Assembly (NCBI GenBank): GCA_020833005.1
Contig: JAJHRD010000002.1
Coordinates: 134,287 to 169,624 of the forward strand
Direction of reading: 5' to 3'
DNA from: Candidatus Methanomethylicota archaeon
Lineage (GTDB): Archaea > Thermoproteota > Methanomethylicia > Culexarchaeales > Culexarchaeaceae
DNA length: 35,338 nucleotides
Shown here: positions 1,099-29,932 of the stretch, piece after piece
Layout: every line of letters begins with the position of its first letter
Position numbering within the stretch: position 1 is the stretch's first letter
Position numbers and translations under genes: made by a program
Notes under the pieces: model-generated
The model's input: only the letters and a program-made list of their open reading frames with translations
Told to the model about the DNA's origin: nothing
Database searches by the model: none

Positions 1099-1839
1099 TT
1101 AACGTACTCTTCTCGGAGCCCCCTTCTTCCTTCCAGTTCTCCTGGGAGCGATTATACCGACCTTCTGTCCTGGAGGAGCTGTTCTAGGAACTGGCGTTCC
1201 ACCTTTTGGATGGGATCCCCCACCATGTGGATGACTTGCAGCTACCATCGCCTTACCTCTAACAATAGGCCATTTAACAGCTTTTCTCTTTATTAAATGA
1301 TATTTATTTCCAGCTTTTAGGAATGGTTTTTCAATTCTTCCTCCCGCAGCAACTATTCCTATAGTGGCTCTACACCTAGAGTCTATTGTTTTTAGCTTAC
1401 CTGAAGGTAACTTTATAACTGTTTCACCGGAAGAGTGTGCAACAACAATTGCGTATGCACCAGATCTACGTGCTATTTTACCACCATCTCCAGGTCTCAG
1501 TTCAACATTGCAAATATTTGTTCCCTCAGGAATATTACCCACCGGAAGTATGTTTCCAACATCTACTTCTGCAAGTACACCTTTAGCTACATTTTTACCC
1601 ACATATATACCTTCAGGGGCTACTATCAACTCCCTACTACCATCCTCGAATTTTATTAATGCCAATGGACAACCTCTACCTGGATCATGTAAAAGATCCT
1701 CTACAACTCCATTTATTTTTGATGTGTATTCAATTTTACTTGGAGTGTTATATCTTGCAGGACCAACTTTAATCCATTTTGGAGATCTGAAATTTGACCC
1801 GCCTCTACCTTTACGCTGTACAAGAATTCTTTTCCCCAT
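1099..1839 (-). CDS. rpl2: 50S ribosomal protein L2 (uL2)
   Basis: 246 residues, full length for the archaeal family. Structural protein of the large subunit near the peptidyl-transferase centre. Diagnostic segments are the N-terminal basic region with RKGRGGSNFRSP, the central PVGNIPEGTNICNVE, and the C-terminal VAASHPHGGGSHPKG loop that holds the conserved histidine near the active site. It lies 12 nt after rpl23 in the L3-L4-L23-L2 order. Unlike most archaea, no rps19 follows; a TRAM gene and then a tRNA follow instead. Confidence 0.98.
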   Translation of the reverse strand: MGKRILVQRKGRGGSNFRSPKWIKVGPARYNTPSKIEYTSKINGVVEDLLHDPGRGCPLALIKFEDGSRELIVAPEGIYVGKNVAKGVLAEVDVGNILPVGNIPEGTNICNVELRPGDGGKIARRSGAYAIVVAHSSGETVIKLPSGKLKTIDSRCRATIGIVAAGGRIEKPFLKAGNKYHLIKRKAVKWPIVRGKAMVAASHPHGGGSHPKGGTPVPRTAPPGQKVGIIAPRRTGRKKGAPRRVR

Positions 1840-1851
1840 TTCATTACACCT

Positions 1852-2121
1852 CTATAGTATACCCATCTTTGAAGCTACATCTGAAGCTGAATGTTCTGAG
1901 CTAAGTTTGACATAAGCCTTCTTCTCACCTTTCGGCGTTATAAGCGTGTTAACTTTATCTACTTTCACATTAAATAATTTTTCTACAGCCCACTTAATTA
2001 AGTGTTTATTTGCATTCCTATCAACAATGAAAGTTAGTTTATTTTCTGTTTCAATCTTCCTTAATGCGGATTCGGATATCACAGGCCTTATTATTATTTT
2101 CCAAGGATCCATATCCTCCAT
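1852..2121 (-). CDS. rpl23: 50S ribosomal protein L23 (uL23)
   Basis: 89 residues. Large-subunit protein at the nascent-chain exit, one of the docking sites for SRP, which is also encoded here (srp54 and SRP RNA). The sequence runs from [18 protein letters not shown] through the conserved [18 protein letters not shown] to KKAYVKL. The ATG at 2121 has a good ribosome-binding site (GGAGGTTA, 4-5 nt upstream) lying over the end of rpl4, so translation is coupled. A second ATG four codons in is possible but has poorer spacing. Confidence 0.97.
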
Positions 2122-2124
2122 GAC

Positions 2125-2970
2125 TTAACCTCCAACCGTTTGAGATTTAATCTCATAATTAAATATGTTTGTGTACAATAAATGTTTACCCTTATACAAT
2201 GAGAAGCGTTCATTTAATATGTCTATGGCACTTTGTGTGAAAATCGTTAGTCTACCAGGGTTTCCTCCAGGGGCCAAATGCACAACGCTCAAATCACGTG
2301 CATTAACCACATCCAATCCAGGAAAATTCTTCACAGAGTTTATGAGTGGATAAATGTTTGAGACTACTATTAGGGGGCCTTTACCAATCTTGTATCTTCT
2401 ACCCCTAAGTTTACCCTTACCAGCCCTAATCCTTATACCTTCTTTAACCCTCTCAATATCCGCCCAAAAGCCTAATTTAAGTGCAATATCTCTAAATGAC
2501 TTACTCTTTTCAACTTTTTCCAATTCATTAGAAACTATCAATGGTATTTGAGGAATTGATGATACTAAGTGACCTCTTCCCGATACGAATGTTACATTTG
2601 CCGTGGCAGATAATGCTGATAAAATGGCATAGATACGTTCTTTCTTATTTATTTTTTCATGAATACGCTTTTCAACGGTTGGTGCATGAGCACTCCTACC
2701 GCCAACGGTCATAGTTGCAAAGGCAGCCACCCCAGCTTCAGGATATCCAGAACCTTTAACTCTTGGAACTCTTGCCACCCCATGGCCTACACCCCAACTT
2801 TTAGCAGTCGTACGTTTTCCAGCAAGTGGATCTCTACCCTGAGGTTGAATTCTTGCGGTTAAAGATGATATATAGGCTCTTCTGATAATATCCTTCCTAA
2901 TTGGGATTTGGAAAAACCATGGAGTCTCCATTTCCCCAATCACAGATCCATTTAAGTCATATATTTTCAT
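2125..2970 (-). CDS. rpl4: 50S ribosomal protein L4 (uL4)
   Basis: About 281 residues. Large-subunit assembly protein lining the exit tunnel. Recognisable parts are the N-terminal YDLNGSVIGEMETPWFF, the tunnel loop rich in Gly/Arg with WGVGHGVARVPRVKGSG, and GGRSAHAPTVEKRIHEKINKKER, typical of archaeal/eukaryotic L4. A GTG at 2979 opens the frame, but the ATG at 2970 has GGTGAT four bases upstream and gives the usual family N terminus, so it is preferred. It overlaps or abuts the end of rpl3. Confidence 0.97.
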   Translation of the reverse strand: MKIYDLNGSVIGEMETPWFFQIPIRKDIIRRAYISSLTARIQPQGRDPLAGKRTTAKSWGVGHGVARVPRVKGSGYPEAGVAAFATMTVGGRSAHAPTVEKRIHEKINKKERIYAILSALSATANVTFVSGRGHLVSSIPQIPLIVSNELEKVEKSKSFRDIALKLGFWADIERVKEGIRIRAGKGKLRGRRYKIGKGPLIVVSNIYPLINSVKNFPGLDVVNARDLSVVHLAPGGNPGRLTIFTQSAIDILNERFSLYKGKHLLYTNIFNYEIKSQTVGG

Positions 2971-2975
2971 GTGAA

Positions 2976-3971
2976 TCACCTATTAATGTACACCAATTTC
3001 GGTTGCTTAATTTGATAATCTTCTGGCATTCTTATTGCAGGTCTAATTTTAACTAATCTCTTGGGAGGACCTGGGACTGAACCTTCGATCAAAATGTAAT
3101 TGCTTTTGACTAGACCGTAGTGGCAAAAACCACCTTTAACATTAATCTCCTCTCCACTCTTCCCAATTTTAAGTATCCTCTTATTGAACTCTGTCCTGAG
3201 GTGAAATCCCATCTGTCCAGGTCTGGGAACTGTCCACATAACTCCTGATGGCGTTCCAGGGCCTATGGATCCCACCTTTCTCGACCCTTTTCTATGCTTA
3301 TGCCATCTCCCTAAAACTTTTACGCCAAATCGTTTAACCACGCCTTGAAATCCCTTACCCTTAGTTACTGAGATCACATCAACATACTGCCCTTCCTTGA
3401 AGACATCAGCTACATTTATTTCCGAACCAAGTAGTTTGAAGGCAAAATCCAACTGCTCTTTCAATGTTCCACCATCCACCTTTATCTCGAATAGTTCAGG
3501 CTTCTTCTTTCCAATTCCAGCTTTATTTGGTTGCGTACATGTAATTAATCTAACTTCACTTATTTCATTCAATTTTGAGTATAATTCATCAATGGAGGGA
3601 GGTTCAATCTTTTCTGGTAACGTGAAAACTCTCTCTAAAGATTTGGGGATTTTATCAGACCATAACTCCGTTAATGATCTTAAGGTACCATACTTCTTCG
3701 AATAAACTCTTATACCAGCAACGAATAGGGGTGGTGTCTCTAAAATTGTTGCAGCTTTAACCACTTCCTTACCAAACATTGGAGTTCCAGGTCTATCTTC
3801 AACAACAACTACATGTGTCATTCCAACTTTATAGCCAGCAAATCCCATTATCCTAACAGCACCTTTGGCACTAGGCCAAGATCGAACTCTTGGGATTATA
3901 CTCTTAGCTCTAACTCTAGGTGCAAATGCTAAGGATCCTCTTCTTGGAGCACTATACTTTCTATGACCCAA
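2976..3971 (-). CDS. rpl3: 50S ribosomal protein L3 (uL3), TTG start
   Basis: About 331 residues. Early-assembly large-subunit protein whose central loop reaches the peptidyl-transferase centre. Visible are GHRKYSAPRRGSLAF at the start, the GYKVGMTHVVVVEDRPG block, and GKGFQGVVKRFGVK with RWHKHRKGSRKVGSIGP, the archaeal/eukaryotic tryptophan-finger region. The frame is open up to 4007, but the family always begins with M-G-H-R-K, which here corresponds to TTG at 3971 preceded by a strong GGTGGGGG ribosome-binding site. An AT-rich TATA-like stretch lies at about 4008-4018, so rpl3 may have its own promoter. Confidence 0.97.
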   Translation of the reverse strand: MGHRKYSAPRRGSLAFAPRVRAKSIIPRVRSWPSAKGAVRIMGFAGYKVGMTHVVVVEDRPGTPMFGKEVVKAATILETPPLFVAGIRVYSKKYGTLRSLTELWSDKIPKSLERVFTLPEKIEPPSIDELYSKLNEISEVRLITCTQPNKAGIGKKKPELFEIKVDGGTLKEQLDFAFKLLGSEINVADVFKEGQYVDVISVTKGKGFQGVVKRFGVKVLGRWHKHRKGSRKVGSIGPGTPSGVMWTVPRPGQMGFHLRTEFNKRILKIGKSGEEINVKGGFCHYGLVKSNYILIEGSVPGPPKRLVKIRPAIRMPEDYQIKQPKLVYINR

Positions 3972-4032
3972 AGCCCCCACCAGATAACCTTTAAGTGGAA
4001 AATACAATCATATATATTTATCTTTTGCGTGT

Positions 4033-4941
4033 TTAAATGTAATGCATAATATTGATAATACTCAAAGTGGCAAGCATAGCCTCCTCAGTTCTCACAGTTT
4101 CACATCCCTGAAAAGGAATTGTATTAACTATGAAATGCGCAATATCCGATAAATTCACTTTAAATCGTTTGCATATCTCAAAGAGACCTTCATGGGGTGA
4201 ACCAAATAAGATTAGTATTTTATTGCTTTTTCGAATGGCATCTTTCATGTCGTTGAAAACTTTGGTGATCGGATCCCCATACTTAGAAGTGGCAATTACA
4301 AGATCGGCATTAAAACTTTTTATGGAATCCACCAACCCCTTATGCTCATAATTAACTGTGTAACCCCAATATAGTTTGACTTCTTCACGTGACACCACGG
4401 ACAATTTTAAAGAATCTTTCGTTTTGTTTATTTTAACGGTAACACGTTCCCCCCTTTTCAATTTCTTTGGAACAAGAAATGGTTTATCTAAACCTATATC
4501 CACCAAGGACCCATCTTTGTAAGTCTTTATCACAACACCATCTCTAAAATCTCCATCTTTTATACCATCCAAACTTGAAGCTACAGTATGTGAAGGTATT
4601 TTCAGTGGAGGGAGAAGGCCAGCATATTTAAAGAGGGCGGAAATCGTATATATTCGTTTTCGAAGATACTGAGGCGTTTCACAATATCTCAATATATTAG
4701 CTAATAATTCTCCCTCATCTTCAGTGCCATGCTTATCCACATATATAATTATCTCATCAACTCGAAATATTGCCGCGGTTCTAGCGATCAACCCAGCTTT
4801 AACGGTTTTTTCCCTTAGATGGGGGAGATCAGCGGTAAGACTAGCAGGCAAAGCCACAGCTAAAGGCTTGCTTCGTTTCTCAGGATAAAGCAAAGGGGGA
4901 CACCACATTACTATTTCAACTTCATTGCTGTGAATAGCCAA
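4033..4941 (-). CDS. SPOUT-class RNA methyltransferase, MTH1/COG2106 family
   Basis: 302 residues. Member of the archaeal SPOUT family related to human SPOUT1 (C9orf114), thought to methylate rRNA or tRNA uridines. The trefoil-knot methyltransferase is split by an OB-like insert, seen here around residues 120-185 (DGVVIKTYKDGSLVDIGL and GERVTVKI). The C-terminal knot residues include LFGSPHEGLFEI and FIVNTIPFQGCETVRTEEA. The gene sits just upstream of rpl3, its usual archaeal place, suggesting a role in large-subunit assembly. The start is TTG at 4941, about 26 nt from a TATA-like stretch, consistent with a leaderless transcript; ATG at 4908 is the alternative. Exact substrate unknown. Confidence 0.88.
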   Translation of the reverse strand: MAIHSNEVEIVMWCPPLLYPEKRSKPLAVALPASLTADLPHLREKTVKAGLIARTAAIFRVDEIIIYVDKHGTEDEGELLANILRYCETPQYLRKRIYTISALFKYAGLLPPLKIPSHTVASSLDGIKDGDFRDGVVIKTYKDGSLVDIGLDKPFLVPKKLKRGERVTVKINKTKDSLKLSVVSREEVKLYWGYTVNYEHKGLVDSIKSFNADLVIATSKYGDPITKVFNDMKDAIRKSNKILILFGSPHEGLFEICKRFKVNLSDIAHFIVNTIPFQGCETVRTEEAMLATLSIINIMHYI

Positions 4942-4984
4942 AAACGTTTATCATGTAAAATTGTATAATATAATAAAGATCGAT

Positions 4985-6430
4985 TCACCCCTTTGCAACA
5001 GCTATTGGTATAAATCTGGCAACGAGGGTAGCTATTCCAACATTGTGGGATACATTGGCAACCCTATCGATATCTTTATATGCTTCAGGAGCCTCTTCTA
5101 TAATTCCATCCCTACTAGCTGCTTTTATTAAAATCCCCCTACTAGCTAATCTTCTAGTTATTTCATTGGCTGTAAATTGCTTTAAAGCTTGTGCACGGCT
5201 GAGTAAACGTCCAGCTCCATGCGCCGTTGACCCAAAACTAATCTCCATAGCCTTTTGCTGGCCCAGTAGTAGATAGGATGCCGTCCCCATGGATCCGGGT
5301 ATTATTACTGGTTGACCAATCTTTCTGTATTCTTCTGGTAGTTCTGGGTGACCTGCTGGAAATGCTCTAGTGGCGCCCTTTCTATGCACATAAACTTTAC
5401 GCGTCTCCCCATTTACCTTATGATCCTCAAGTTTAGCTATATTGTGTGCTACATCGTATATCATATGCATTCCTAAAGATTCCGCAGATTGCTTTAGAAC
5501 CTTTTCAAACGATTCTCTCACCCAATGCAATATTAATTGTCTATTAGCCCAAGCATAATTTGACGCACAAGCCATGGCTGCAAAATAATCTTCAGCCTCC
5601 CTACTTTTAGCTGGCGCATACACCAATTCTCTATCTGGAAATCTAAGATTATACTTTCTAGAGGCTCTTTCCATTATGACGAGGTAATCAGAGCAAACTT
5701 GATGTCCAAGTCCACGTGAACCTGTATGTATCATCACAGTAATTTGTCCTTCATGAAATATACCGAAGGCCTTAGCTACCTTCTCATCATATATCTTATC
5801 AACAACTTGTATTTCTAAGAAGTGATTTCCACTCCCAAGAGTACCAAGTTGTGGAGCTCCTCTAGCTTTAGCTTTACTTGAAACCTTACTTGGATCTGCA
5901 TTCTCTAAAGCTCCATATGCTTCACACCTCTTTACATCTTCCTCCCAGCCATAACCGTTTTCAACAGCCCATTTAGCACCCCCCATTAATACTTCATCAA
6001 GCTGATTTGTGGATAATCTGATCTTCCCTTCAGAACCAACACCTGATGGAACCATAATGAAAATGGTATCAAGAAGCTGTGCTACCTTATCTTTAATGTC
6101 GTTATAGCTTAGATCTGATCTTATTAACCTAACGCCGCAATTGATATCATAACCTACGCCACCAGGACTCACAATACCTTCTTCAGCATCAAAGGCGGCA
6201 ACCCCACCTATTGGAAAACCATAACCCTCATGTCCATCAGGCAGAACTATTGAAAATTTGTATATCCCGGGAAGTTTGGCAACGTTTATACATTGCTCAA
6301 GCGTTCTATCTTCCTTCATTTTCTGAAGCAATACATCATCAGCGTAAACTATGCCAGGAACCTTCATACCAATAGTTGGATCTTTAGGTATAATCCACGT
6401 GAACTCATTAACTCGCTCTATTTTAACCAT
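4985..6430 (-). CDS. rtcB: tRNA-splicing ligase RtcB, no intein
   Basis: 481 residues. GTP/Mn-dependent RNA ligase that joins tRNA halves (2',3'-cyclic phosphate plus 5'-OH) after intron removal. Metal and nucleotide ligands are visible: Asp95 and Cys98 in GYDINCGVR, His203 in GSGNHFLE, a His near 235 in HTGSRGLGHQ, His329 in YDVAHN, and the guanylylated His404 in STAHGAGR; the last two match the numbering known for Pyrococcus RtcB. Many archaeal rtcB genes carry an intein; this one does not. ATG at 6430 has GGTGGGGAT just upstream. The gene lies 92 nt downstream of archease, its activator, and close to several intron-containing tRNAs. Confidence 0.98.
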   Translation of the reverse strand: MVKIERVNEFTWIIPKDPTIGMKVPGIVYADDVLLQKMKEDRTLEQCINVAKLPGIYKFSIVLPDGHEGYGFPIGGVAAFDAEEGIVSPGGVGYDINCGVRLIRSDLSYNDIKDKVAQLLDTIFIMVPSGVGSEGKIRLSTNQLDEVLMGGAKWAVENGYGWEEDVKRCEAYGALENADPSKVSSKAKARGAPQLGTLGSGNHFLEIQVVDKIYDEKVAKAFGIFHEGQITVMIHTGSRGLGHQVCSDYLVIMERASRKYNLRFPDRELVYAPAKSREAEDYFAAMACASNYAWANRQLILHWVRESFEKVLKQSAESLGMHMIYDVAHNIAKLEDHKVNGETRKVYVHRKGATRAFPAGHPELPEEYRKIGQPVIIPGSMGTASYLLLGQQKAMEISFGSTAHGAGRLLSRAQALKQFTANEITRRLASRGILIKAASRDGIIEEAPEAYKDIDRVANVSHNVGIATLVARFIPIAVAKG

Positions 6431-20956: not shown

Positions 20957-21460
20957 ATGAAAAGAGTGCTTATTTTAGATTCTTCAGCCATAATGAATGG
21001 TTATAATCCACTGTTAGTAACTAACTGTAGGCAAATAATATCAGTTGATGCTCTGAATGAGATATTAAAAGATGATGAAAAAGCTTTGGTGGAATATGCC
21101 ATTGAAATTGATAGGCTTGAAAAAGCAACACCTAAACCAGAAACTATCATGAAGGTAGAAGAAGTTGCAAGAAAAACTAATGACAGAAAATATCTTTCAA
21201 ATAGCGATCTTTCAATACTAGCATTAGCATTGGATCTTATCGAAGAAGGATGGAACCCAGTTATATTAACTGATGATTTCTCAATACAAAATGTAGCAAA
21301 AGTTTTGGGAATAGAATATGCGCCAATAGCCACGCGAGGTATTAGAAAAGTGATTAACTGGAAGCTGTATTGTCCAGCATGTGGAAGAAGGTATGAAGAT
21401 GAAGACATAAGTGAGTGTAATGTTTGCGGAACGAAATTAAAAAGAAAACCTAGACCTTAA
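20957..21460 (+). CDS. nob1: Ribosome maturation endonuclease Nob1 (PIN domain plus zinc ribbon)
   Basis: 167 residues. Cleaves the 3' end of pre-16S rRNA. PIN domain at about 1-120 with acidic residues in LILDSSAIMNG (Asp8), SNSDLSILALAL and VILTDDFSIQN; then a zinc ribbon with CPACG and CNVCG (about 137-161) and a basic tail. Domain order and size are typical of archaeal Nob1. Its last 11 nt overlap the convergent methyltransferase gene. Confidence 0.95.
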   Translation: MKRVLILDSSAIMNGYNPLLVTNCRQIISVDALNEILKDDEKALVEYAIEIDRLEKATPKPETIMKVEEVARKTNDRKYLSNSDLSILALALDLIEEGWNPVILTDDFSIQNVAKVLGIEYAPIATRGIRKVINWKLYCPACGRRYEDEDISECNVCGTKLKRKPRP

Positions 21461-22634
21461 CAAATTTAGCTATGAAGTATCCAGGCGTATCATGTTCATC
21501 AGGATAGAAGCGTTGAAGTAAATTTGACCCTTTAATAATGTTTAATCCTTGTGTACCAATATAAAGAATCTGTTTATCCAATTCCAATGGGAAATTTTCT
21601 AAAGCATACTTCACAATAATCTCATTTTCATCTGGTGTTATAGTGCATGTTGAATATACAAGAATTCCACCTTTTTTCAAAATTTCCACAGCAGATTTAA
21701 AAAATTGCATCTGATATTGAGCACATGCAATAATATCCCTAACTGATTTATATTCAAATAATTTAGGTCTTACACCAAGTGCAGAGCATGGTGGATCCAG
21801 TAACACTTTGTCAGCCTTTAAAGATGGGTAATCTACATGGAGGTATCTAGAATCTGAAAAAATTACACTTACATTCCTTACTCCTAATCTGTTGATATTT
21901 TCTATTAACTTACTTATTTTTGACTTAGAATTATCAAAGGCGTATATTTTGGCTTTATTGGAAGTTAATTGCGCCAAATGTGTTGTCTTACCACCTGGAG
22001 CTGCACACATATCTACTATAACATCATGTGGCGTTGGTTCCAGAATAATACTAGTTAATATGGCAGGTATGTTTTGATCATAAATCTTACCAGAAACATA
22101 TTCGTCTAGACATCTAATGGATGCACTTTGATATCTTGATCGCAAAACTTTAACTGCTAACCCCTTCCTCTGGTTGAGAATATCTACTTCACTTTGCATA
22201 GCGATTCCATTAGCCACAGGAAAACCTTTTTCATCAACGATAGTAACAAAATCCGATCTTGCAACACCCTTTGCTGATATAACGCCAGGAGCATAAAGAT
22301 CAGCACCCACATAAACACTCTCTGCAGCTTTTTTATCTGCAACAACTATTTTCCCTTGAACTTCAATTTCAAAAGGCCCTTTAACTTTAATTAGTAAAAC
22401 ATCATCTAATATTGGATGAAAAACCGTTTCGATATTTTTCTCGCATAAAGACCTATATACTTCCTCAACACTAGCCTTAAGAGTATTTACGCGAATGGAA
22501 TAGAATGAAGGGGGGTGCACTAATGCGCCAATTATATTACTTGTTTTTGAAAAACCGAAAAACTTACTTAAATAGGAAAAAAGTTCTTCTGAAAAGCGAG
22601 TCCCTTCAGCAAGCTTACAAGTATTGTCAGCCAT
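21450..22634 (-). CDS. RNA m5C methyltransferase with PUA domain, NSUN6-like
   Basis: About 394 residues. NOP2/NSUN-family enzyme. A PUA domain is inserted near residues 95-170 (VADKKAAESVYVGADLYAPGV), the arrangement seen in NSUN6, which methylates C72 of the tRNA acceptor stem. The methylase domain shows VDMCAAPGGKTTHLAQL (SAM site), LLDPPCSALGVRPK and LVYSTCTITPDENE, giving the two family cysteines. The frame opens at TTG (22643), but ATG at 22634 gives a normal start. C72-specific activity is inferred from the domain layout. Confidence 0.9.
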   Translation of the reverse strand: MADNTCKLAEGTRFSEELFSYLSKFFGFSKTSNIIGALVHPPSFYSIRVNTLKASVEEVYRSLCEKNIETVFHPILDDVLLIKVKGPFEIEVQGKIVVADKKAAESVYVGADLYAPGVISAKGVARSDFVTIVDEKGFPVANGIAMQSEVDILNQRKGLAVKVLRSRYQSASIRCLDEYVSGKIYDQNIPAILTSIILEPTPHDVIVDMCAAPGGKTTHLAQLTSNKAKIYAFDNSKSKISKLIENINRLGVRNVSVIFSDSRYLHVDYPSLKADKVLLDPPCSALGVRPKLFEYKSVRDIIACAQYQMQFFKSAVEILKKGGILVYSTCTITPDENEIIVKYALENFPLELDKQILYIGTQGLNIIKGSNLLQRFYPDEHDTPGYFIAKFVKV

Positions 22635-22666
22635 AATATACAAATAGTATAAAGTAGTTGAGGTAT

Positions 22667-24079
22667 TTAAGGTGTATTTGGGGCGGCAGGGTAAAGTAAA
22701 ACTTTGTTCTCATTTTTGATGTAAATTTCAAGTGTGAAGGGGATGCTGGAAGTGTGAGTGGCGCATGAAAGGCATGGGTCATAGTTCCTTATCATTCTGG
22801 ATATAGTATCATATAACCTCTCTTCAGAAACACCATACTTATCAATAACTTGTTGTGATCTGGCAACAATTTCACTTTCAATTACTGGTGTATTTTGGAC
22901 GGTGGCCACTATCAAGTTTGCATACTTTATGTAGCCATAATCGTCAACCTTATAGTGATGTATAAGTAATCCCCTAGGAGCCTCTATAATACCAATACCA
23001 TCACTATTCATGGGTTTCAGATTCTTTTGCAGGTAAACGGATTCCATGATTCTTTTATCATCTAATATTTCAAGAATTTTATCCAATACGTATTTGATTT
23101 CCGCTATTCTAACAATGTTATAATACTCAGAGGCGCATATTGGTGAAGGAACGTTATATAAAAATTGTTGGGCAAAGATTTCAGAATTTTCAGAATAGAA
23201 TTTACCATTTATATTGAACCTAGCAAGAGGACCTACTCTATAATAACCGTTATCAATGATCTTCAAATATGGAGCTTTAGCATAACTCCAAGAAACTGCT
23301 TTTTCACATATCACCTTCAGATAATCGTTATGCTGAAAAGAGGTTAACAACTCGCCTTTTGGAGAAATGGCATGAATCTCATCTGAATGGTAGAGAGGAT
23401 AACCTGACTTAGAATGTAACGACACAAAATTGCTTGGCAAACTTATAGAGTTCTCCAATATTTTACTTAACTTATCTTCGATTGTTTCAACGATGATATT
23501 AAATAGTTTTATTGATTTTGATGCTTTATCTCTCAATTCAGTTTGTTGTGAAGGTTTGAGTGGGTTAAGAAAAGTTCCAGCCATAGTTGCAGAAGGATGA
23601 ATTGATGAACCACCTAAAATTTCTAGTATTTGTTGTGCAAATCCTCTAATTTCTAAAACATCTTTAACTAATGATGGATAACTTTTAATCATACCGACAA
23701 ATCCAGGATTCGGTTTAATATCAGAGAATAATATGTCAGGGAGATATAGCATGAAAAAGTGAAGTAAGTGGCTGTGTAAAAATCCTGCGTAATGTAATAA
23801 TTCACGTAACCTTATGATATTTTCTTTTGGGATTACTCCGAATATTTCATCCAACGCTTTAACCGATGCTAAATGGTGAGATGGAGAGCATAGACCGCAT
23901 ATTCTTGGTACGATTAATGGAACTTCTTCGATGGGCCTATTTATTAGTAGTTTTTCAAACCCCCTATATTCGGTTACTTGGAAATACGCATTTTCAATCT
24001 TATCATCATTTAAAACTAATGTAACTTTAGAATGTCCTTCTATTCTGGTTATTGGATGAAAAACCATTTTTTTACTCAT
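22667..24079 (-). CDS. mvhA: NiFe hydrogenase large subunit, Mvh (group 3) type
   Basis: About 470 residues. Holds the NiFe site. Ligand motif L1 is RICGLCSPSHH (Cys61, Cys64) and L2 is DPCLSCATH; a 28-residue tail follows the last histidine, expected to be cut by a maturation protease such as the one at 29393. RGFEKLLINRPIEEVPLIVPRICG closely follows methanogen MvhA. A GTG at 24091 overlaps the mvhG stop by 4 nt, but ATG at 24079 has GGTGAT with good spacing. Last gene of the kor-mvh unit. Alternative: another group 3 cytoplasmic hydrogenase; the adjacent mvhD argues for Mvh. Confidence 0.92.
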   Translation of the reverse strand: MSKKMVFHPITRIEGHSKVTLVLNDDKIENAYFQVTEYRGFEKLLINRPIEEVPLIVPRICGLCSPSHHLASVKALDEIFGVIPKENIIRLRELLHYAGFLHSHLLHFFMLYLPDILFSDIKPNPGFVGMIKSYPSLVKDVLEIRGFAQQILEILGGSSIHPSATMAGTFLNPLKPSQQTELRDKASKSIKLFNIIVETIEDKLSKILENSISLPSNFVSLHSKSGYPLYHSDEIHAISPKGELLTSFQHNDYLKVICEKAVSWSYAKAPYLKIIDNGYYRVGPLARFNINGKFYSENSEIFAQQFLYNVPSPICASEYYNIVRIAEIKYVLDKILEILDDKRIMESVYLQKNLKPMNSDGIGIIEAPRGLLIHHYKVDDYGYIKYANLIVATVQNTPVIESEIVARSQQVIDKYGVSEERLYDTISRMIRNYDPCLSCATHTSSIPFTLEIYIKNENKVLLYPAAPNTP

Positions 24080-24087
24080 GGCATTAA

Positions 24088-24957
24088 TCACCTTCGTTTA
24101 ATAAAGTTTAACTTAGAAGACGCTAATGTGTATCGGTATAGAAGACCTATGAGATCTTTTATTTTATTTATATCAATATCTTTTGACTTCTCATCAATCA
24201 TTGACGAAATGGACGACAAAAATTTTACCGCTGCTTCATCGACATTATGGATGGGTCCCATGCAACCTCTACATGGAGTATTAGCTTTTATACATCTAGC
24301 ATCACAACCAGCTCTAATTATGGGTCCAAGACAAAGCACACCTTGTTCTAAGAAGCATTCATTTGGTGTGAAAGGCTCAAGGGAGAATTGTCGAATACTT
24401 TTTATAACTTTATCTTCACCAGTGTTTAGTGGACATTCATTACATACACTTTTTTCAGGTAGTATGAAAGGTTCGCCTTTTAATAAATGTTCAAACAATT
24501 TAAGAATTAGATTTTTAGGCGGTGGACACCCTGGAATGGCAATATCAATATTAACAAAATCAACAATAGGTTTAGCATTATCAATTAATTTAGGCATATC
24601 ATAATCGTCAAAAGAGATATTAGGTGAATAAACATCGTTAATTACACTTTGAATATCATGCAAGTTCAGTAATCCAGGTATACCCCCATAACAAGCGCAA
24701 CTCCCAAAGGCTACAAGTAATTTACTTTTTTTACGCCAATTCAACAACTTATTTACATCTTCATGAAAACGCACATTTCCAGTTACTATTCCAATATCAA
24801 CATTATCCGGTTCTTTAAAGTCGGTTAGTATGGGTGAATATACTATTTCCAAATTGTTGAAAATAACATTATCAACATGCCATATATCAAGTAATGAGTT
24901 TTCACAGCCACTACATCCAATTAATGGAAAAATGGCTAAAGTTAGCTTGGAATTCAT
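24088..24957 (-). CDS. mvhG: NiFe hydrogenase small subunit, Mvh type
   Basis: 289 residues. Carries the Fe-S relay from the NiFe site. Proximal cluster cysteines lie in GCSGCENSLLD (near residue 15), GSCACYGGIPG and PGCPPP; further cysteines CNECPLN and CDARCIKANTPCRGCMG serve the medial and distal clusters. No twin-arginine signal, so it is cytoplasmic, as expected for group 3 enzymes. It starts 3 nt after mvhD and overlaps mvhA. Confidence 0.92.
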   Translation of the reverse strand: MNSKLTLAIFPLIGCSGCENSLLDIWHVDNVIFNNLEIVYSPILTDFKEPDNVDIGIVTGNVRFHEDVNKLLNWRKKSKLLVAFGSCACYGGIPGLLNLHDIQSVINDVYSPNISFDDYDMPKLIDNAKPIVDFVNIDIAIPGCPPPKNLILKLFEHLLKGEPFILPEKSVCNECPLNTGEDKVIKSIRQFSLEPFTPNECFLEQGVLCLGPIIRAGCDARCIKANTPCRGCMGPIHNVDEAAVKFLSSISSMIDEKSKDIDINKIKDLIGLLYRYTLASSKLNFIKRR

Positions 24958-24960
24958 AGT

Positions 24961-25389
24961 CTATAACCTCCCACATTTAATTTCACATGGACCAAGCTTA
25001 GTTATCTTGTAAGTGAAATCATCAACTATTTTGGAGAAGCGATCCCCCTCGCCAGCAGAAGCCCAGTCTATATGTAATCTATCTGGGTTTATACCCATTT
25101 CTTGTAAGAATTTTTTTAAAAATTCCACTTTCATCTTGGCTTTATAATTTCCATTTATATAATGGCAGTCTCCAGGATGGCAACCTATAATCAAAACACC
25201 ATCTGCACCATGCTGAAATGCGTACAATATATGTGTTGGGTCCACACGTCCACTACACATAACTCTTACTATTCTCAAATTGGAGGAATAGGTTTTCCTT
25301 AAATTTCCTGCTAAATCTGCAGCTGCATAACCACACCAATTACATAAAAACCCAATTATTTTAGGTTTGAATACCTCCGCTTGTTGCAA
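24961..25389 (-). CDS. mvhD: MvhD, iron-sulfur subunit linking hydrogenase to a partner complex
   Basis: 142 residues, full length. In methanogens MvhD carries a [2Fe-2S] cluster and passes electrons from MvhAG to HdrA. Cysteines are visible in FLCNWCGYAAADLAG, RVMCSGRVDP and IIGCHPGDCHY. The start is odd: only TTG at 25389, 29 nt inside korC; a strong GGAGGT lies at 25373-25378 with no standard start codon in frame at normal spacing after it. No hdrA lies nearby, so its partner here is unclear; it could be an Hdr encoded elsewhere or the Kor proteins encoded upstream. Confidence 0.92.
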   Translation of the reverse strand: MQQAEVFKPKIIGFLCNWCGYAAADLAGNLRKTYSSNLRIVRVMCSGRVDPTHILYAFQHGADGVLIIGCHPGDCHYINGNYKAKMKVEFLKKFLQEMGINPDRLHIDWASAGEGDRFSKIVDDFTYKITKLGPCEIKCGRL

Positions 25390-25927
25390 GAAGCTTCATC
25401 CCATAATTGTATCCTTCACGTAATGCTTTTAAATTTAATTCCTCAGAGCCTTTTGGAACGCTATCTAAAATAGCCTTCTCTAAAGCACTGTATGACACGA
25501 TACCAGTTATTGCACATAAAGCACCTAAAATAACTATATTTGCAACAATTCTCCTACCAAGTGCCGTTGCTATTCTTGTGGCAGGAACTTTATATATTCT
25601 AACATTTTTCCTAGGCGCCCCTTCTACTTTTACAAGATCTTCATCCACTATTATTACTCCATTTTCACATACATAGTCTTTATAGTAATTGTATGCATCT
25701 TGAGATAGAGCAATCAATATATTGTTTGATGTTATGTACGGATAATCAATGTCCTCATCAGATATTATTACATCAGTCTTAGATCTGCTACCTCTGGCTT
25801 CAGGACCATAGGACTCTGTTTGAACAACATTTTTATTATCAAATATTGCTGAAGCTTTTCCAAGAATATATCCAGCTAAGAGTATTCCTTGCCCCCCAAG
25901 TCCGGAGATACGTATCTCCCACTTCAT
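25361..25927 (-). CDS. korC: 2-oxoacid:ferredoxin oxidoreductase, gamma subunit
   Basis: 188 residues. The gamma subunit of the CoA-dependent 2-oxoacid dehydrogenases that reduce ferredoxin. ISGLGGQGILLAGYILGKA at the start and TESYGPEARGSRSKTDVIIS are typical of KorC/OorC. ATG at 25927 follows GGGAGGGT at 8 nt. The 3' end overlaps mvhD by 29 nt, which ties the oxidoreductase and hydrogenase genes into one transcript. Confidence 0.93.
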   Translation of the reverse strand: MKWEIRISGLGGQGILLAGYILGKASAIFDNKNVVQTESYGPEARGSRSKTDVIISDEDIDYPYITSNNILIALSQDAYNYYKDYVCENGVIIVDEDLVKVEGAPRKNVRIYKVPATRIATALGRRIVANIVILGALCAITGIVSYSALEKAILDSVPKGSEELNLKALREGYNYGMKLLATSGGIQT

Positions 25928-25933
25928 AAGTGG

Positions 25934-26806
25934 CTACCCTCCCGAAACTATTGACTTAAGTTCAAGACCACTTTGTTCTTTAATTATTCTATAGAGTTCT
26001 TTAACGAACTCTGGCCTATCTCTATCTATGAACTCTCCAACTATTATCTTTTTATTTTTATCTATGTCAACCTGCGCAGGATCCATTCCATTTTGAATTA
26101 CACTATTTTGAAGTAGATATTTTAAAACTTCTGAGGGGCCTCCAAGTTTATTATATCTTGCATACAAGGTAATGCATGGAGCAATAACTTCAATGAAAGA
26201 GAACCCCGATTTTTGGAGCGCCTTCTTTATGGTTTTTATCAAAGCAAAAGGTTGAGCAATAGTCCATCTAGCAACAAAAACAGCACCAGCAGCAGTAGCA
26301 AGATATGGCAAATTGAATGGATGCTCAATATTACCATATGGCGTAGTTGTCGTTATTGATTGAAAAGGTGTAGTAGGACCGAGTTGCCCTCCTGTCATCC
26401 CATAATTGAAGTTATTTACACATATTACAAGTAAATCCACATTTCTCCTTGCTGCATGTATAAAATGATTTCCACCAATGGCAAATAAATCGCCATCCCC
26501 ACTAATAACTACAACTTTTAAATGAGGTTTAGCAATTTTCACTCCCATAGCAACAGGTATAGCACGCCCATGCGTAGTGTGAAAAGAGTCAAGTGCAACA
26601 TAGTTGGCTATTCTACCAGTACAGCCTATACCTGAAACAACGACAACGTTATTTAAGTCAATGCCAGATTCCATTAATGCCCTCAAGTAACAATTTAGAA
26701 CGATTCCTATACCACAACCAGGACACCATATATGTGGCATTCGTTCTGATAGTATCAGATCATCTAATGGATGAGTTTCTTCACAATATTCATCCTTGAA
26801 ACTCAT
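25934..26806 (-). CDS. korB: 2-oxoacid:ferredoxin oxidoreductase, beta subunit (TPP-binding)
   Basis: 290 residues. Binds thiamine diphosphate and a [4Fe-4S] cluster. CPGCG at 28-32 and GIGCTGR supply cluster cysteines, and SGDGDLFAIGGNH with NNFNYGMTGGQ is the Mg-TPP motif. The sequence is closest in pattern to 2-oxoglutarate enzymes (KorB), but substrate cannot be fixed by eye. Overlaps korA by 4 nt (ATGA). Confidence 0.93.
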   Translation of the reverse strand: MSFKDEYCEETHPLDDLILSERMPHIWCPGCGIGIVLNCYLRALMESGIDLNNVVVVSGIGCTGRIANYVALDSFHTTHGRAIPVAMGVKIAKPHLKVVVISGDGDLFAIGGNHFIHAARRNVDLLVICVNNFNYGMTGGQLGPTTPFQSITTTTPYGNIEHPFNLPYLATAAGAVFVARWTIAQPFALIKTIKKALQKSGFSFIEVIAPCITLYARYNKLGGPSEVLKYLLQNSVIQNGMDPAQVDIDKNKKIIVGEFIDRDRPEFVKELYRIIKEQSGLELKSIVSGG

Positions 26807-27945
26807 TTACCACTCACCTCATAAATTAAATTCAATATTTCATTGGGCGTATGAGGATCCCCTCCCATCTTTGGAAGGAAGAAGACTGACTTTCCTTGAA
26901 CACATCTCTCAACTTCCCTAACAATCTGACCATAATTCATCTCAACCACTATGAAGGCTTTAGTATGCTTTGCATATTCAAGGAATTTACGTTGTGGAAA
27001 GGGCCATAATGTTATCAGCCTACATAAACCAACTTTTAATCCTCTTTCCCTAGCGATACGTACAGCTCTTAAAGATGATCTAGCAGGTGCACCATAAGCT
27101 ACGACAACAATTTCAGCGTCTTCCATAAATCTTTCATCAACTTTTATGATTTTCTCAGAGTTTAATCGTATCTTGTCACATAGTCTCTTAACCAATTTCC
27201 AATGCACTTCAGGATCAACTGAAGAGGGGAAGCCACTGAAATCATGAGTTAAACCGGTGACATGAACTTTGAACCCTTCACCAAAACACGCCATTGGGGG
27301 TACTAGATCTTCATCCGGTTTAAAAGGTAAAAATGACTCTTTTGATAGAGGTTTTTTACGATTGACTATTTCAACTTCTTCAGGTAATTTGATAATAACC
27401 TTCTCTCTCATATGACCTACAATTTCATCTGCTAAGAGTATTACGGGGGTTCTAAATTTTTCAGCTAAGTTGAATGCTTCAATGGTCAAATCAAACATTT
27501 CTTGAACAGAGAAGGGTGATAATGCTATTATTTCATAATCACCATGGCTCCCCCATTTAGCTTGCATTACATCCCCCTGGCTTGCACGTGTAGGTTGACC
27601 TGTACTTGGTCCACCGCGCATCACGTTAACTATAACTATTGGTGCTTCAGTCATAAAAGCTAAGCCTATATTTTCCATGAATAAACTCATACCAGGACCA
27701 CTTGTGGCAGTCATAACTTTTGCTCCAGCATATGATGCCCCTATTATTAATGCTATGGAAGAAAGCTCATCTTCCATTTGTATGAATACACCACCTACTT
27801 GTGGAAGTCTAGCGGCAAGTCTCTCAGCAATCTCGGTAGAGGGGGTTATCGGATAACCGGCAAAAACTCTACAACCAGCAACTATAGCTCCCTCAGCACA
27901 AGCCTCATCACCTTGCATGAAGAAAGGTCCATGTAAAAATCGCAT
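26803..27945 (-). CDS. korA: 2-oxoacid:ferredoxin oxidoreductase, alpha subunit
   Basis: 380 residues. QGDEACAEGAIVAGCRVFAGYPITPSTEIAE at the N terminus is the KorA hallmark; MRGGPSTGQPTRASQGD lines the active site; the C-terminal domain (from about 275) shows VVAYGAPARSSLRAV. Probable substrate pair is 2-oxoglutarate/succinyl-CoA. First gene of a six-gene unit running to mvhA. No ferredoxin-like delta subunit (korD) is present next to it. Upstream, 27946-28205 is noncoding and contains two inverted repeats. Confidence 0.93.
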   Translation of the reverse strand: MRFLHGPFFMQGDEACAEGAIVAGCRVFAGYPITPSTEIAERLAARLPQVGGVFIQMEDELSSIALIIGASYAGAKVMTATSGPGMSLFMENIGLAFMTEAPIVIVNVMRGGPSTGQPTRASQGDVMQAKWGSHGDYEIIALSPFSVQEMFDLTIEAFNLAEKFRTPVILLADEIVGHMREKVIIKLPEEVEIVNRKKPLSKESFLPFKPDEDLVPPMACFGEGFKVHVTGLTHDFSGFPSSVDPEVHWKLVKRLCDKIRLNSEKIIKVDERFMEDAEIVVVAYGAPARSSLRAVRIARERGLKVGLCRLITLWPFPQRKFLEYAKHTKAFIVVEMNYGQIVREVERCVQGKSVFFLPKMGGDPHTPNEILNLIYEVSGK

Positions 27946-28205: not shown

Positions 28206-28290
28206 TGCGGGGGGTGGGATTTGAACCCACGAAGGCCTACGCCAGCGGATCTTGAGTCCGCCGCCTTTAACCTGGCTCGGCAACCCCCGC
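28206..28290 (-). tRNA. tRNA-Leu(CAA), no intron
   Basis: Acceptor GCGGGGG/CCCCCGC, anticodon arm GCGGA-CTCAAGA-TCCGC (anticodon CAA), long variable arm TGGCGTAGGCCT, T-arm GTGGGTTCAAATCCCAC. Discriminator A at 28206, CCA not encoded. Unlike the other two leucine tRNAs in the window it is uninterrupted. A TATA-like A/T tract lies at about 28318-28330 on the upstream side. Confidence 0.95.
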
Positions 28291-28347: not shown

Positions 28348-29409
28348 TTAATTGGGAGAAAAGTTATTGTATCCTTTTATTGTTTTTGGTATGTTTTCAT
28401 TAAATGGGGGTAATATTATACCCTTCTCAGTTATTATGCCAGTCACGTAGCTAGGAGGTGTTATGTCAAATGCATAGTTTAATGCATTTATACCCTTTGG
28501 AGCTATACGGTATTTTGACAATACTTTGACAACTTCATCAGCACTTCTCTCCTCTATCTTTATATCATTTATCTTTGATTGTAAGTCGAATGTTGTGGAT
28601 GGAGCAGCCACGTAAAATGGTATATTGTGAACTTTAGAGAGTACGGCAATGGTGTATGTTCCTATTTTGTTGTATACAGTCCCATCGCTTAATATTCTAT
28701 CAGCACCTACAAAGACTTTATCTATTTTATTTTTCTGCATTAAGAAGCCTATCATGTTATCTGTTATTAGTGTAAATGGTATCCCCTCAGCTTTTAATTC
28801 GAAGGCCGTTATCCTTGCACCCTGAAGCTGAGGTCTTGTTTCAGCAACGAAGACATGTATTTTCTTATTGTTCCTCCATGCTGATCTTATAATTCCGAGG
28901 GCAGTACCATAATAAACCGTTGCAAAAGTTCCAGCATTACAATAGGTTAATATATTATCTCCATTGTTGATGAGTTTTTCACCAATTTCACCTATTTTCA
29001 TGTTTGTTAAAACATCCTCTTCAGCCATCCTTAAAGCTTCATTAACAATATCATTTGCAATTTGGGCAGAATCCTTCCTTACATCTATAACTCTCATAAT
29101 TCTTTCAACAGCCCAAAAAAGGTTTCTGGCAGTTGGTCTTGAATTTTTTATTTTATTCATGGTTTCATATACTCTGTTTATAAGGATTTGCTTGTCTTCT
29201 TTTTCGTTTTGTTTAGCTACCATAGCGAGCGCCATAGCCGCTGCAATCCCTATAGCTGGTGCCCCCCTTATCTTCATACTTTTAATAGCATCCAATATTT
29301 CGTCTGCCGTCCTACAATCTATTATCTTAAGTTTTTTTGGAAGTAATGTTTGATCAACTATTTTTACAATGCCATCTTCCCAAGTTATAGTTCTAGGCAA
29401 CGCCCTCAT
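28348..29409 (-). CDS. mtnA: Methylthioribose-1-phosphate isomerase (aIF2B-like fold)
   Basis: 353 residues. Converts 5-methylthioribose-1-phosphate (or related sugar phosphate) to the ribulose form in methionine salvage. Typical blocks: TITWEDGIVKIVDQTLLP at the start, MKIRGAPAIGIAAA, ILTYCNAGTFATVYYGTALG with the catalytic cysteine, AETRPQLQGARITAFEL, and FVGADRILSDGTVYNKIGTY with the catalytic aspartate. Close relatives act on ribose-1,5-bisphosphate; the N-terminal extension and the CNAG motif favour MtnA. It begins 17 nt inside the hydrogenase protease gene. Confidence 0.92.
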   Translation of the reverse strand: MRALPRTITWEDGIVKIVDQTLLPKKLKIIDCRTADEILDAIKSMKIRGAPAIGIAAAMALAMVAKQNEKEDKQILINRVYETMNKIKNSRPTARNLFWAVERIMRVIDVRKDSAQIANDIVNEALRMAEEDVLTNMKIGEIGEKLINNGDNILTYCNAGTFATVYYGTALGIIRSAWRNNKKIHVFVAETRPQLQGARITAFELKAEGIPFTLITDNMIGFLMQKNKIDKVFVGADRILSDGTVYNKIGTYTIAVLSKVHNIPFYVAAPSTTFDLQSKINDIKIEERSADEVVKVLSKYRIAPKGINALNYAFDITPPSYVTGIITEKGIILPPFNENIPKTIKGYNNFSPN

Positions 29410-29932
29410 ATACTATTATCCTCCATACAATGTCTGTAATAAGCTCAACAGATTTACATACCTCTTGCGACAAACCCTCATAAAAATCCAGAATTTTAGG
29501 TTGAATACCTATCAATAAAACTTTCGCCCCAACAATTTCCTCAAGATAGGTAAATATTATTTCAGGGGAAATAGTGTGTGTCGATACTGTTACTGAATGT
29601 AGAAGATCACCCCTTCTAAATAACCCAATAGTTCCAGGTGGCTTTTGCATTTCCACAGCATCAATTATAATTACGTGAGAAGGGGATAGTGTTTCAATCT
29701 TACCAAGAAAGTTTTCAGGGATTGCACCGCAATTTAACAATATAACTGAGTTAAGGTCATGTATATCATCGTACTCACTAATTCTCTTGTTCAATAGTTC
29801 GATTACCTTTAAACCAGCTGCATCATCTCCTCTCAACTCATTTCCAATGCCCATAATAACTACTTTTCTAAATCCTTCAAGAAATTTATTTATACCCGTA
29901 AAGATTTCTTCAGCTTTATTTATATTCCTCAT
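29393..29932 (-). CDS. Hydrogenase maturation protease, HycI/HyaD family
   Basis: 179 residues. Removes the C-terminal tail of the NiFe large subunit after nickel insertion. IMGIGNELRGDDAAGLKVI (residues about 30-48) contains the conserved metal-binding acidic residue; IIIDAVE and SVTVSTHTISPEII are the other family marks. Its likely client is MvhA (22667), which has a 28-residue tail after DPCLSCATH. It is separated from the hydrogenase genes by about 2 kb and coupled to mtnA instead. Divergent from endA-like across 34 nt. Confidence 0.92.
   Translation of the reverse strand: MRNINKAEEIFTGINKFLEGFRKVVIMGIGNELRGDDAAGLKVIELLNKRISEYDDIHDLNSVILLNCGAIPENFLGKIETLSPSHVIIIDAVEMQKPPGTIGLFRRGDLLHSVTVSTHTISPEIIFTYLEEIVGAKVLLIGIQPKILDFYEGLSQEVCKSVELITDIVWRIIVYEGVA

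What the first reader, a model, noticed from the sequence alone, without database searches (positions are those of the whole stretch)
22667..27945. 2-oxoacid oxidoreductase and Mvh hydrogenase fused into one six-gene operon without Hdr
korA, korB, korC, mvhD, mvhG and mvhA are all on the minus strand with gaps of 3-8 nt or overlaps of up to 29 nt (korC/mvhD). MvhADG is known to deliver electrons to HdrABC for flavin-based bifurcation; here HdrABC is absent and its place is taken by the CoA-dependent 2-oxoacid:ferredoxin oxidoreductase, which itself lacks a korD ferredoxin subunit. MvhD could dock on KorABC, making an H2-linked 2-oxoacid enzyme (H2 evolution during 2-oxoglutarate oxidation, or H2-driven reductive carboxylation). 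The operon is seen directly; the complex is inference.
Basis: partly seen in the sequence, partly recalled or inferred. Interest (0 to 1): 0.75.

Follow-up and report, generated by a model that had tools for sequence, protein, structure and literature searches.

The report
Hydrogenase and 2-oxoacid enzyme in one operon
A hot-spring archaeon keeps the genes for a hydrogen enzyme and for an enzyme that breaks down 2-oxoacids in one tight operon, which suggests, but does not prove, that it couples the breakdown of amino-acid skeletons to hydrogen gas.

Summary
In detail: korA-korB-korC-mvhD-mvhG-mvhA is a compact minus-strand block, and no ferredoxin-type korD lies in the window. The genome is of Culexarchaeia kind. 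All 7 genomes held of its order keep the block, but the unrelated genes downstream are about as syntenic, so this adds little. Stronger is the phylum-wide pattern: in 9 of 20 fetched neighbourhoods of related kor genes, kor adjoins an hdrA that carries an MvhD domain or is followed by mvhD, with varying further modules (GltD-like, HdrBC, HdrCB+Etf). Two other lineages, G043 and G118, show kor-hdrA-mvhD-mvhG-mvhA (G043 cut by contig ends, G118 with broken frames). Trees reject a sister relation of their tested hydrogenase subunit to that of Culexarchaeia, which points to separate joinings. Culexarchaeia is the form without hdrA and korD in the operon. "Without Hdr" is true only locally: the genome has two HdrA-bearing sets, one with an HdrA lacking an MvhD domain, so MvhADG may still serve HdrABC in trans. 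Electron coupling of Kor and Mvh is favoured (about 0.5); direct MvhD-Kor contact about 0.3. MvhD shows no partner-switch signature. Not seen in the papers searched; a new variant of a known kind.

The parts
26803..27945 (-). korA, 2-oxoacid:acceptor oxidoreductase alpha, 380 aa, YPITP motif present (motif recalled)
   Evidence: nearest solved chains 1yd7 (2-keto acid:ferredoxin oxidoreductase alpha), then 8ys5 (2-oxoglutarate synthase alpha)
25934..26806 (-). korB, beta subunit, 290 aa; invariant Cys 28, 31, 62, 129, 211, of which 28, 31, 62 and 211 are read as the proximal [4Fe-4S] site (assignment recalled)
25361..25927 (-). korC, gamma subunit, 188 aa; overlaps mvhD by 29 nt
24961..25389 (-). 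mvhD, free FlpD/MvhD adaptor, 142 aa; Cys 16, 19, 45, 70, 75 invariant in the order
   Evidence: (5odc chain D, E 1.6e-47)
24088..24957 (-). mvhG, small subunit of group 3c-like [NiFe] hydrogenase, 289 aa
22667..24091 (-). mvhA, large [NiFe] subunit, 474 aa, RICGLC and DPCLSC motifs intact, C-terminal extension
21450..22643 (-). PUA + RsmB/F-type rRNA methyltransferase directly after mvhA; same place in all 7 genomes of the order; probably a passenger
29393..29932 (-). hycI-type hydrogenase maturation protease, near but not in the operon
   Evidence: TIGR00142 above cut-off
28206..28290 (-). tRNA-Leu (CAA) between korA and the next upstream gene; the upstream neighbour of korA differs in G005 (inverted block) and in G006

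Best explanation
KorABC and MvhADG work as one hydrogen-linked 2-oxoacid oxidoreductase. KorABC oxidises a 2-oxoacid (2-oxoglutarate most likely) with CoA to acyl-CoA and CO2 at its thiamine site. The electrons leave through the KorB [4Fe-4S] cluster, pass to the [2Fe-2S] adaptor MvhD and go on through MvhG to the [NiFe] site of MvhA, where H2 is released (or, at high H2, the flow is reversed for reductive carboxylation). Shown: the gene set, its compactness, intact ligand and active-site motifs, absence of korD, and recurrent kor-hdrA-mvhD(-mvhGA) clusters in the phylum. Inferred: that the two enzymes exchange electrons at all (about 0.5, the figure given below); within that, that MvhD takes the place of KorD and touches Kor directly (about 0.3) rather than through an HdrA supplied in trans (about 0.2, listed as a rival).
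For: Compact co-directional block with overlapping korC/mvhD, in 7 of 7 genomes of the order, three family codes, MvhA identity down to 46-48%. No korD frame, with working positive controls. KorB, MvhD and MvhA keep their ligand cysteines; MvhG has 12 invariant cysteines. Parallels in the phylum: G043 korB(part)-korC-hdrA-mvhD-mvhG-mvhA(part) and G118 korDABC-hdrA-mvhD-mvhG-mvhA. MvhG of Culexarchaeia and G043 as one clade rejected, p-AU 0.008; MvhA of Culexarchaeia and G118 rejected, p-AU 0.0007. In 9 of 20 fetched kor neighbourhoods kor adjoins hdrA with an MvhD domain or a following mvhD, further modules varying: GltD-like, HdrBC, HdrCB+EtfA. A related kor adjoins succinyl-CoA ligase genes in L277, which fits 2-oxoglutarate. 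MvhD is described as shared by MvhAG, FdhAB and MetFV modules (PMC6085437, passages).
Against: In both parallel lineages HdrA lies between korC and mvhD, so direct Kor-MvhD transfer has no precedent in gene order outside this order of archaea. 11 of the 20 fetched kor neighbourhoods show no hdrA beside kor (three of them cut by contig ends), and of 96 fetched mvhG neighbourhoods outside the order only one has kor (some cut by contig ends). The genome has an unfused HdrA that could use a free MvhD; in the class a whole HdrA of that form (648-663 aa) was found only in the genomes of this order that are at least 76% complete (one clade, so one co-occurrence). Culexarchaeia MvhA and MvhG lie near those of ordinary hdrA-mvhDGA operons such as L115/L116. 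Synteny downstream of the operon is about as conserved as within it. MvhD shows no excess of clade-specific changes (3 positions; six control clades 0 to 8). A second KorABC (contig C1) has no korD motif within 9 kb and no hydrogenase beside it, so lack of korD alone does not imply MvhD docking.
Confidence: 0.5

Rival explanations
1. Two separate enzymes under one promoter. KorABC reduces a soluble ferredoxin, as 2-oxoacid oxidoreductases without a D subunit are known to do (recalled). MvhADG pairs in trans with HdrABC (unfused HdrA near etf genes, plus HdrCB) for flavin-based bifurcation, as Kohtz et al. 2022 assumed.
For: An HdrABC whose HdrA lacks its own MvhD exists in 5 of 7 genomes of the order; the two without a match are 42 and 45% complete. 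In the class that whole HdrA form and this operon occur in the same clade only. Culexarchaeia HdrA, MvhG and MvhA lie near those of hdrA-mvhDGA operons, though a clade of just the Culexarchaeia HdrA with L115/L116 is itself weakly rejected (p-AU 0.03). A KorABC without korD motif or hydrogenase nearby exists in the same genome. Kohtz et al. give MvhADG to HdrABC and KOR to ferredoxin (PMC9723716, passages and section 27).
Against: That hdrA lies with etf genes, not with mvh. kor-hdrA-mvhD association recurs in several family codes of the phylum, which bare co-regulation does not predict.
Confidence: 0.35
2. Three-way complex with HdrA supplied in trans: KorABC-HdrA-MvhADG, as gene order suggests for G118 and G043, in which the HdrA flavin splits or merges electrons between Kor, H2 and a further partner (ferredoxin, Etf or a disulfide). 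Counted inside the 0.5 of the best explanation.
For: kor-hdrA-mvhD-mvhG-mvhA gene order in G118 and G043; kor-hdrA-mvhD-hdrC-hdrB in G171; an unfused HdrA is available in Culexarchaeia.
Against: The Culexarchaeia unfused HdrA does not group with the kor-linked HdrAs of G043 and G171 (p-AU 3.3e-5), and its gene lies on other contigs, near etf genes.
Confidence: 0.2
3. Chance adjacency or assembly artefact without biological meaning.
For: Gene order next to the operon is slow to change in this order.
Against: Same block in 7 genomes, two of them matched to named public records, and related blocks in two other lineages.
Confidence: 0.03

Closest known systems
MvhADG-HdrABC (group 3c [NiFe] hydrogenase with heterodisulfide reductase; solved as 5odc)
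   Same: MvhA and MvhD align over nearly their whole length to the solved chains; MvhG matches the VhuG model; motif cysteines kept
   Different: No hdrA, hdrB or hdrC in the operon; korABC stands in their place
KorABCD / OorDABC 2-oxoglutarate:ferredoxin oxidoreductase
   Same: KorA and KorC pass 2-oxoacid:acceptor oxidoreductase models; solved relatives 8ys5 and 1yd7
   Different: No KorD ferredoxin subunit; a hydrogenase with MvhD follows instead
Kor-HdrA-MvhD clusters of other genomes of the phylum seen here (L262, L263, L265, L266, L268-L271, L275, L114)
   Same: kor in a cluster with MvhD or an MvhD domain
   Different: All ten have hdrA; eight show a korD-like gene before korA, while L269 and L114 begin too near the contig end to tell. 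The window's operon has neither
FdhAB-MvhD-HdrABC and MetFV-MvhD-HdrABC (review PMC6085437, passages)
   Same: MvhD used as adaptor for a catalytic module other than MvhAG
   Different: There MvhD still works with HdrA; here the neighbour is a 2-oxoacid enzyme and HdrA is not encoded alongside

Membership tests
Group 3c [NiFe] hydrogenase (MvhADG) | Large subunit with both CxxC nickel motifs | tested here: met
   C65/C68 and C440/C443 invariant in 6 sequences
Group 3c [NiFe] hydrogenase (MvhADG) | Free MvhD with its cysteines | tested here: met
   Five Cys invariant in the order, present in 92-100% of 52 other free MvhD sequences
Group 3c [NiFe] hydrogenase (MvhADG) | Passing the curated NCBIfam cut-offs of VhuA, VhuG, VhuD | tested here: not met
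   276 of 800, 207 of 450 and 139 of 215 bits: relatives, not members of those narrow models
MvhADG-HdrABC bifurcating complex | hdr genes encoded with mvhDGA | tested here: not met
   No hdr gene in the operon in 7 of 7 genomes
MvhADG-HdrABC bifurcating complex | An HdrA without its own MvhD available in the genome | tested here: met
   Unfused HdrA, apparently one gene split over contigs C4 and C6; whole orthologues in G002, G003, G005, G007
MvhADG-HdrABC bifurcating complex | Physical binding of MvhD to HdrA | not testable with these tools
   Only single chains can be predicted
KorABCD 2-oxoglutarate:ferredoxin oxidoreductase | KorA, KorB, KorC catalytic core | tested here: met
KorABCD 2-oxoglutarate:ferredoxin oxidoreductase | KorD two-cluster ferredoxin subunit | tested here: not met
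   No motif in window or six related loci; controls positive
KorABCD 2-oxoglutarate:ferredoxin oxidoreductase | 2-oxoglutarate as substrate | tested here: inconclusive
   Family models say 2-oxoacid; a related kor adjoins succinyl-CoA ligase genes in L277

The most novel reading that the evidence does not exclude
KorABC and MvhADG form a stable complex in which MvhD docks on KorB in place of KorD and of HdrA: a soluble, non-bifurcating, H2-evolving 2-oxoacid dehydrogenase, the stripped-down end of a wider set of Kor-HdrA-MvhD complexes in this archaeal phylum with swappable further modules.
Probability: 0.3. Interest if true: 0.75.

Novelty: new variant of a known kind. Interest (0 to 1): 0.55.

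Why it matters
2-oxoacid oxidoreductases are thought to hand electrons to free ferredoxin, and MvhADG to hand them to HdrA. A direct link would make H2 the immediate product of amino-acid skeleton oxidation, give a ferredoxin-free route for fermenters, and show MvhD as a general adaptor beyond Hdr. The wider kor-hdrA-mvhD pattern suggests electron bifurcation tied to 2-oxoacid metabolism in several archaeal lineages, which is testable by expressing a few genes.

Tried and rejected
Tried without result: clade-specific residues in MvhD as a sign of a new partner (3 positions in Culexarchaeia, 0 to 8 in six control clades); a KorC tree to place G043 (unresolved); a wider hunt in the class of G358 (81 genomes, 7 with MvhG at E 1e-50, all 7 already met); the class of G043 holds only G043. 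HdrB in G043: one protein with two CCG domains beside an unrelated gene.

Considered and rejected: conserved adjacency in the order as strong evidence, because the genes downstream, unrelated in kind as far as their families are known to me, are about as syntenic; 'Hdr absent'; a sister relation between the Culexarchaeia hydrogenase subunits and those of G043 and G118, with the caution that these groups were chosen after a first tree had been seen, and that losses in other lineages could mimic separate joinings.

Rows dropped: L031 and L032 (same contigs as G004 and G003) and L066 (near-copy) were left out of all trees. Near-copies were left out (over 90% alike for MvhG and KorC, 92% for MvhD, 75% for HdrA, 60% in the reduced MvhG and MvhA trees), so the window's own proteins are stood for by close kin. 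Length limits were set in each script (HdrA 600 to 870 aa). The reduced MvhG tree left out 12 named loci, long-branched or far; the MvhA trees these and 8 more. HdrA rows were cut before their MvhD domain; the G118 MvhA row was trimmed of its first 65 residues (rest of a broken mvhG frame).
Full report
What is there. The window holds six minus-strand ORFs, korA-korB-korC-mvhD-mvhG-mvhA, from 27945 down to 22667, with gaps of 3 and 6 nt and overlaps of 4, 4 and 29 nt. Pfam assigns all six above cut-off. NCBIfam gives 2-oxoacid:acceptor oxidoreductase for KorA and KorC, and matches below cut-off to KorB, VhuA, VhuG and VhuD models. The free MvhD aligns to solved MvhD chains (5odc, E 1.6e-47). 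MvhA keeps both CxxC motifs, MvhD five cysteines, and KorB five invariant cysteines of which I read four as cluster ligands from memory. No CxxCxxCxxx[CP] motif exists in any frame of the window or of six related loci, while the scan does find korD in control loci. A PUA/RsmB-F methyltransferase follows mvhA after 23 nt, and tRNA-Leu lies upstream of korA.

Where it comes from. The nearest public records found are Candidatus Methanomethylicota archaeon SJ3.Bin40 (98% in MvhD) and Candidatus Culexarchaeum nevadense (88%), so the window is of Culexarchaeia kind (taxonomy). In the 40 genomes held of the class, 15 have an MvhD-like match. The six-gene block is in 7 of 7 genomes of the window's order (G000, G002 to G007; three family codes), with MvhA identity down to 46-48%. 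In the fetched stretches of the other 8 genomes with MvhD-like matches I saw hdr genes and no close KorABC; in one (L076) a distant PorB/PorA-like pair lies about 3 kb from the hdrA genes (not every match of these genomes was fetched with long flanks). Against over-reading this: in G002, G006 and G007 the genes downstream of the operon are kept in order too, with one insertion in G007, while upstream of korA the order differs in G006 and in G005.

Hdr in the genome. The operon lacks Hdr, the genome does not. On contig C4 is HdrA2 fused to an MvhD domain in which three of the five cysteines are missing, with HdrC2 and HdrB2. A second HdrA, without MvhD domain, is apparently split between the ends of contigs C4 and C6. 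Its orthologues in G005, G003 and G002 are whole and stand next to etf genes, with hdrC and hdrB on the other side; in G007 the etf and hdrCB genes lie within about 5 kb (Etf confirmed by Pfam in L225 and L226 only). In the class this whole 648-663 aa form was found only in G000 (split), G002, G003, G005 and G007; the two other genomes of the order are 42 and 45% complete. That is one clade and so one co-occurrence, but the published assignment (MvhADG with HdrABC; Kohtz et al. 2022, PMC9723716: section 27 read, other passages by word search) cannot be dismissed.

The wider pattern. A search of 398 genomes of the phylum with the order's MvhG found matches at E 1e-20 in 155. I fetched 96 stretches around the strongest matches outside the order, some cut by contig ends; one of 96 has kor: G043 (L114), korB(part)-korC-hdrA-mvhD-mvhG-mvhA(part) on a 4.6-kb contig. 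The same 398 genomes searched with KorB gave 93 with matches at E 1e-70, the order's own 7 included. I fetched 20 neighbourhoods, from the strongest matches and for spread of families. In 9 of 20 kor adjoins hdrA. Five (L262, L263, L265, L266, L268) read [474-478 aa gene]-hdrA with MvhD domain-korDABC; that gene is Fer4_8 + Pyr_redox_2, GltD-like, in the three tested. L269 reads korABC-hdrA/MvhD-hdrC-hdrB; L271 korDABC-hdrA-mvhD-hdrC-hdrB; L275 korDABC-hdrA/MvhD-HdrCB-etfA and then an EtfB-like gene not tested by Pfam. L270 (G118) reads korDABC-hdrA-mvhD-mvhG-mvhA followed by hdr genes, with hdrA and mvhG broken across frames in this assembly; its mvhG scored too low to be among the 96. Two short loci, of the family of L275, also show hdrA after korC (L258, L260). 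The remaining 11 of 20 show no hdrA beside kor; three of them (L273, L279, L280) are cut by contig ends, and L280 is of the other kor type.

One origin or several. MvhG of Culexarchaeia and G043 do not form one clade (reduced tree of 37 rows, p-AU 0.008; full tree); MvhA of Culexarchaeia and G118 neither (35 rows, p-AU 0.0007). G043's MvhD groups with the kor-linked MvhDs of G118 and G171, in a set of 8 with five others (98/89). The KorC tree is unresolved there. The Culexarchaeia unfused HdrA does not group with the kor-linked HdrAs of G043 and G171 (p-AU 3.3e-5). In the tree it lies nearest to HdrAs of hdrA-mvhDGA operons (L119, L120, then L115, L116), though a clade of it with L115/L116 alone is weakly rejected too (p-AU 0.03). 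Culexarchaeia MvhG and MvhA lie near those of L115/L116 and similar operons. A simple history, not proved, is that an ancestral hdrABC-mvhDGA set was split, hdrA ending beside etf and mvhDGA beside kor, while other lineages joined kor to hdrA-mvhD on their own.

How it most likely works. Recurrent pairing of kor with MvhD-bearing modules argues for electron exchange between them. The simplest path from the parts encoded together is KorB cluster to MvhD to MvhG to MvhA. From memory, 2-oxoglutarate/succinyl-CoA lies near -0.5 V and H+/H2 at -0.41 V at standard conditions, so H2 evolution runs downhill, more so at low H2. I give electron coupling of Kor and Mvh about 0.5; within it direct contact without HdrA about 0.3 and a bridge by HdrA in trans about 0.2; separate enzymes about 0.35. 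Against direct contact: HdrA stands between in both parallels, MvhD shows no unusual change, and a KorABC without korD motif or hydrogenase nearby exists in the same genome.

Print status. Searches of open full texts listed no paper whose title or opening of abstract treats a kor-mvh or kor-hdrA operon; two searches listed only 20 of 44 and 20 of 58 papers. Passages of PMC11237513, PMC8359953 and PMC6085437 and of PMC9723716 (12 of 23 places shown, plus section 27) do not mention it. Supplements were not read, and subscription papers are outside the library. Verdict: real, conserved, a new variant of a known kind; mechanism open.

Noticed in passing
G000 contig C4 (L002:1462-3372, L021:14186-16576): HdrA2 carries a C-terminal MvhD-like domain in which three of the five cysteines of free MvhD are missing, so it probably holds no [2Fe-2S] cluster.
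   Followed up: partly
L262, L263, L265, L266, L268 (five genomes of the phylum): hdrA with MvhD domain and a gene of 474-478 aa (GltD/NfnB-like by Pfam in the three tested) before korDABC: a possible NAD(P)H-linked bifurcating 2-oxoacid complex.
   Followed up: partly
L225, L226, L227, L228: etf genes, hdrA and hdrC-hdrB together in genomes of the window's order, an Etf-Hdr set (Etf tested by Pfam in L225 and L226 only).
   Followed up: partly
L270:5092-7016 and 4189-4719: hdrA and mvhG of the G118 kor-hdrA-mvhDGA cluster lie in broken reading frames, perhaps assembly error.
   Followed up: no
L022:3025-14845 (G000 contig C8): A two-subunit 2-oxoacid oxidoreductase (fused gamma-alpha plus beta) lies about 5 kb from a second set of [NiFe] hydrogenase genes on the same strand (group 3b by recall and by Kohtz et al.).
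   Followed up: no
window 1102-6430: Ribosomal proteins L2, L4, L3, an RNA methyltransferase and RtcB on the minus strand; in G006 this block lies directly upstream of korA, a rearranged junction.
   Followed up: partly
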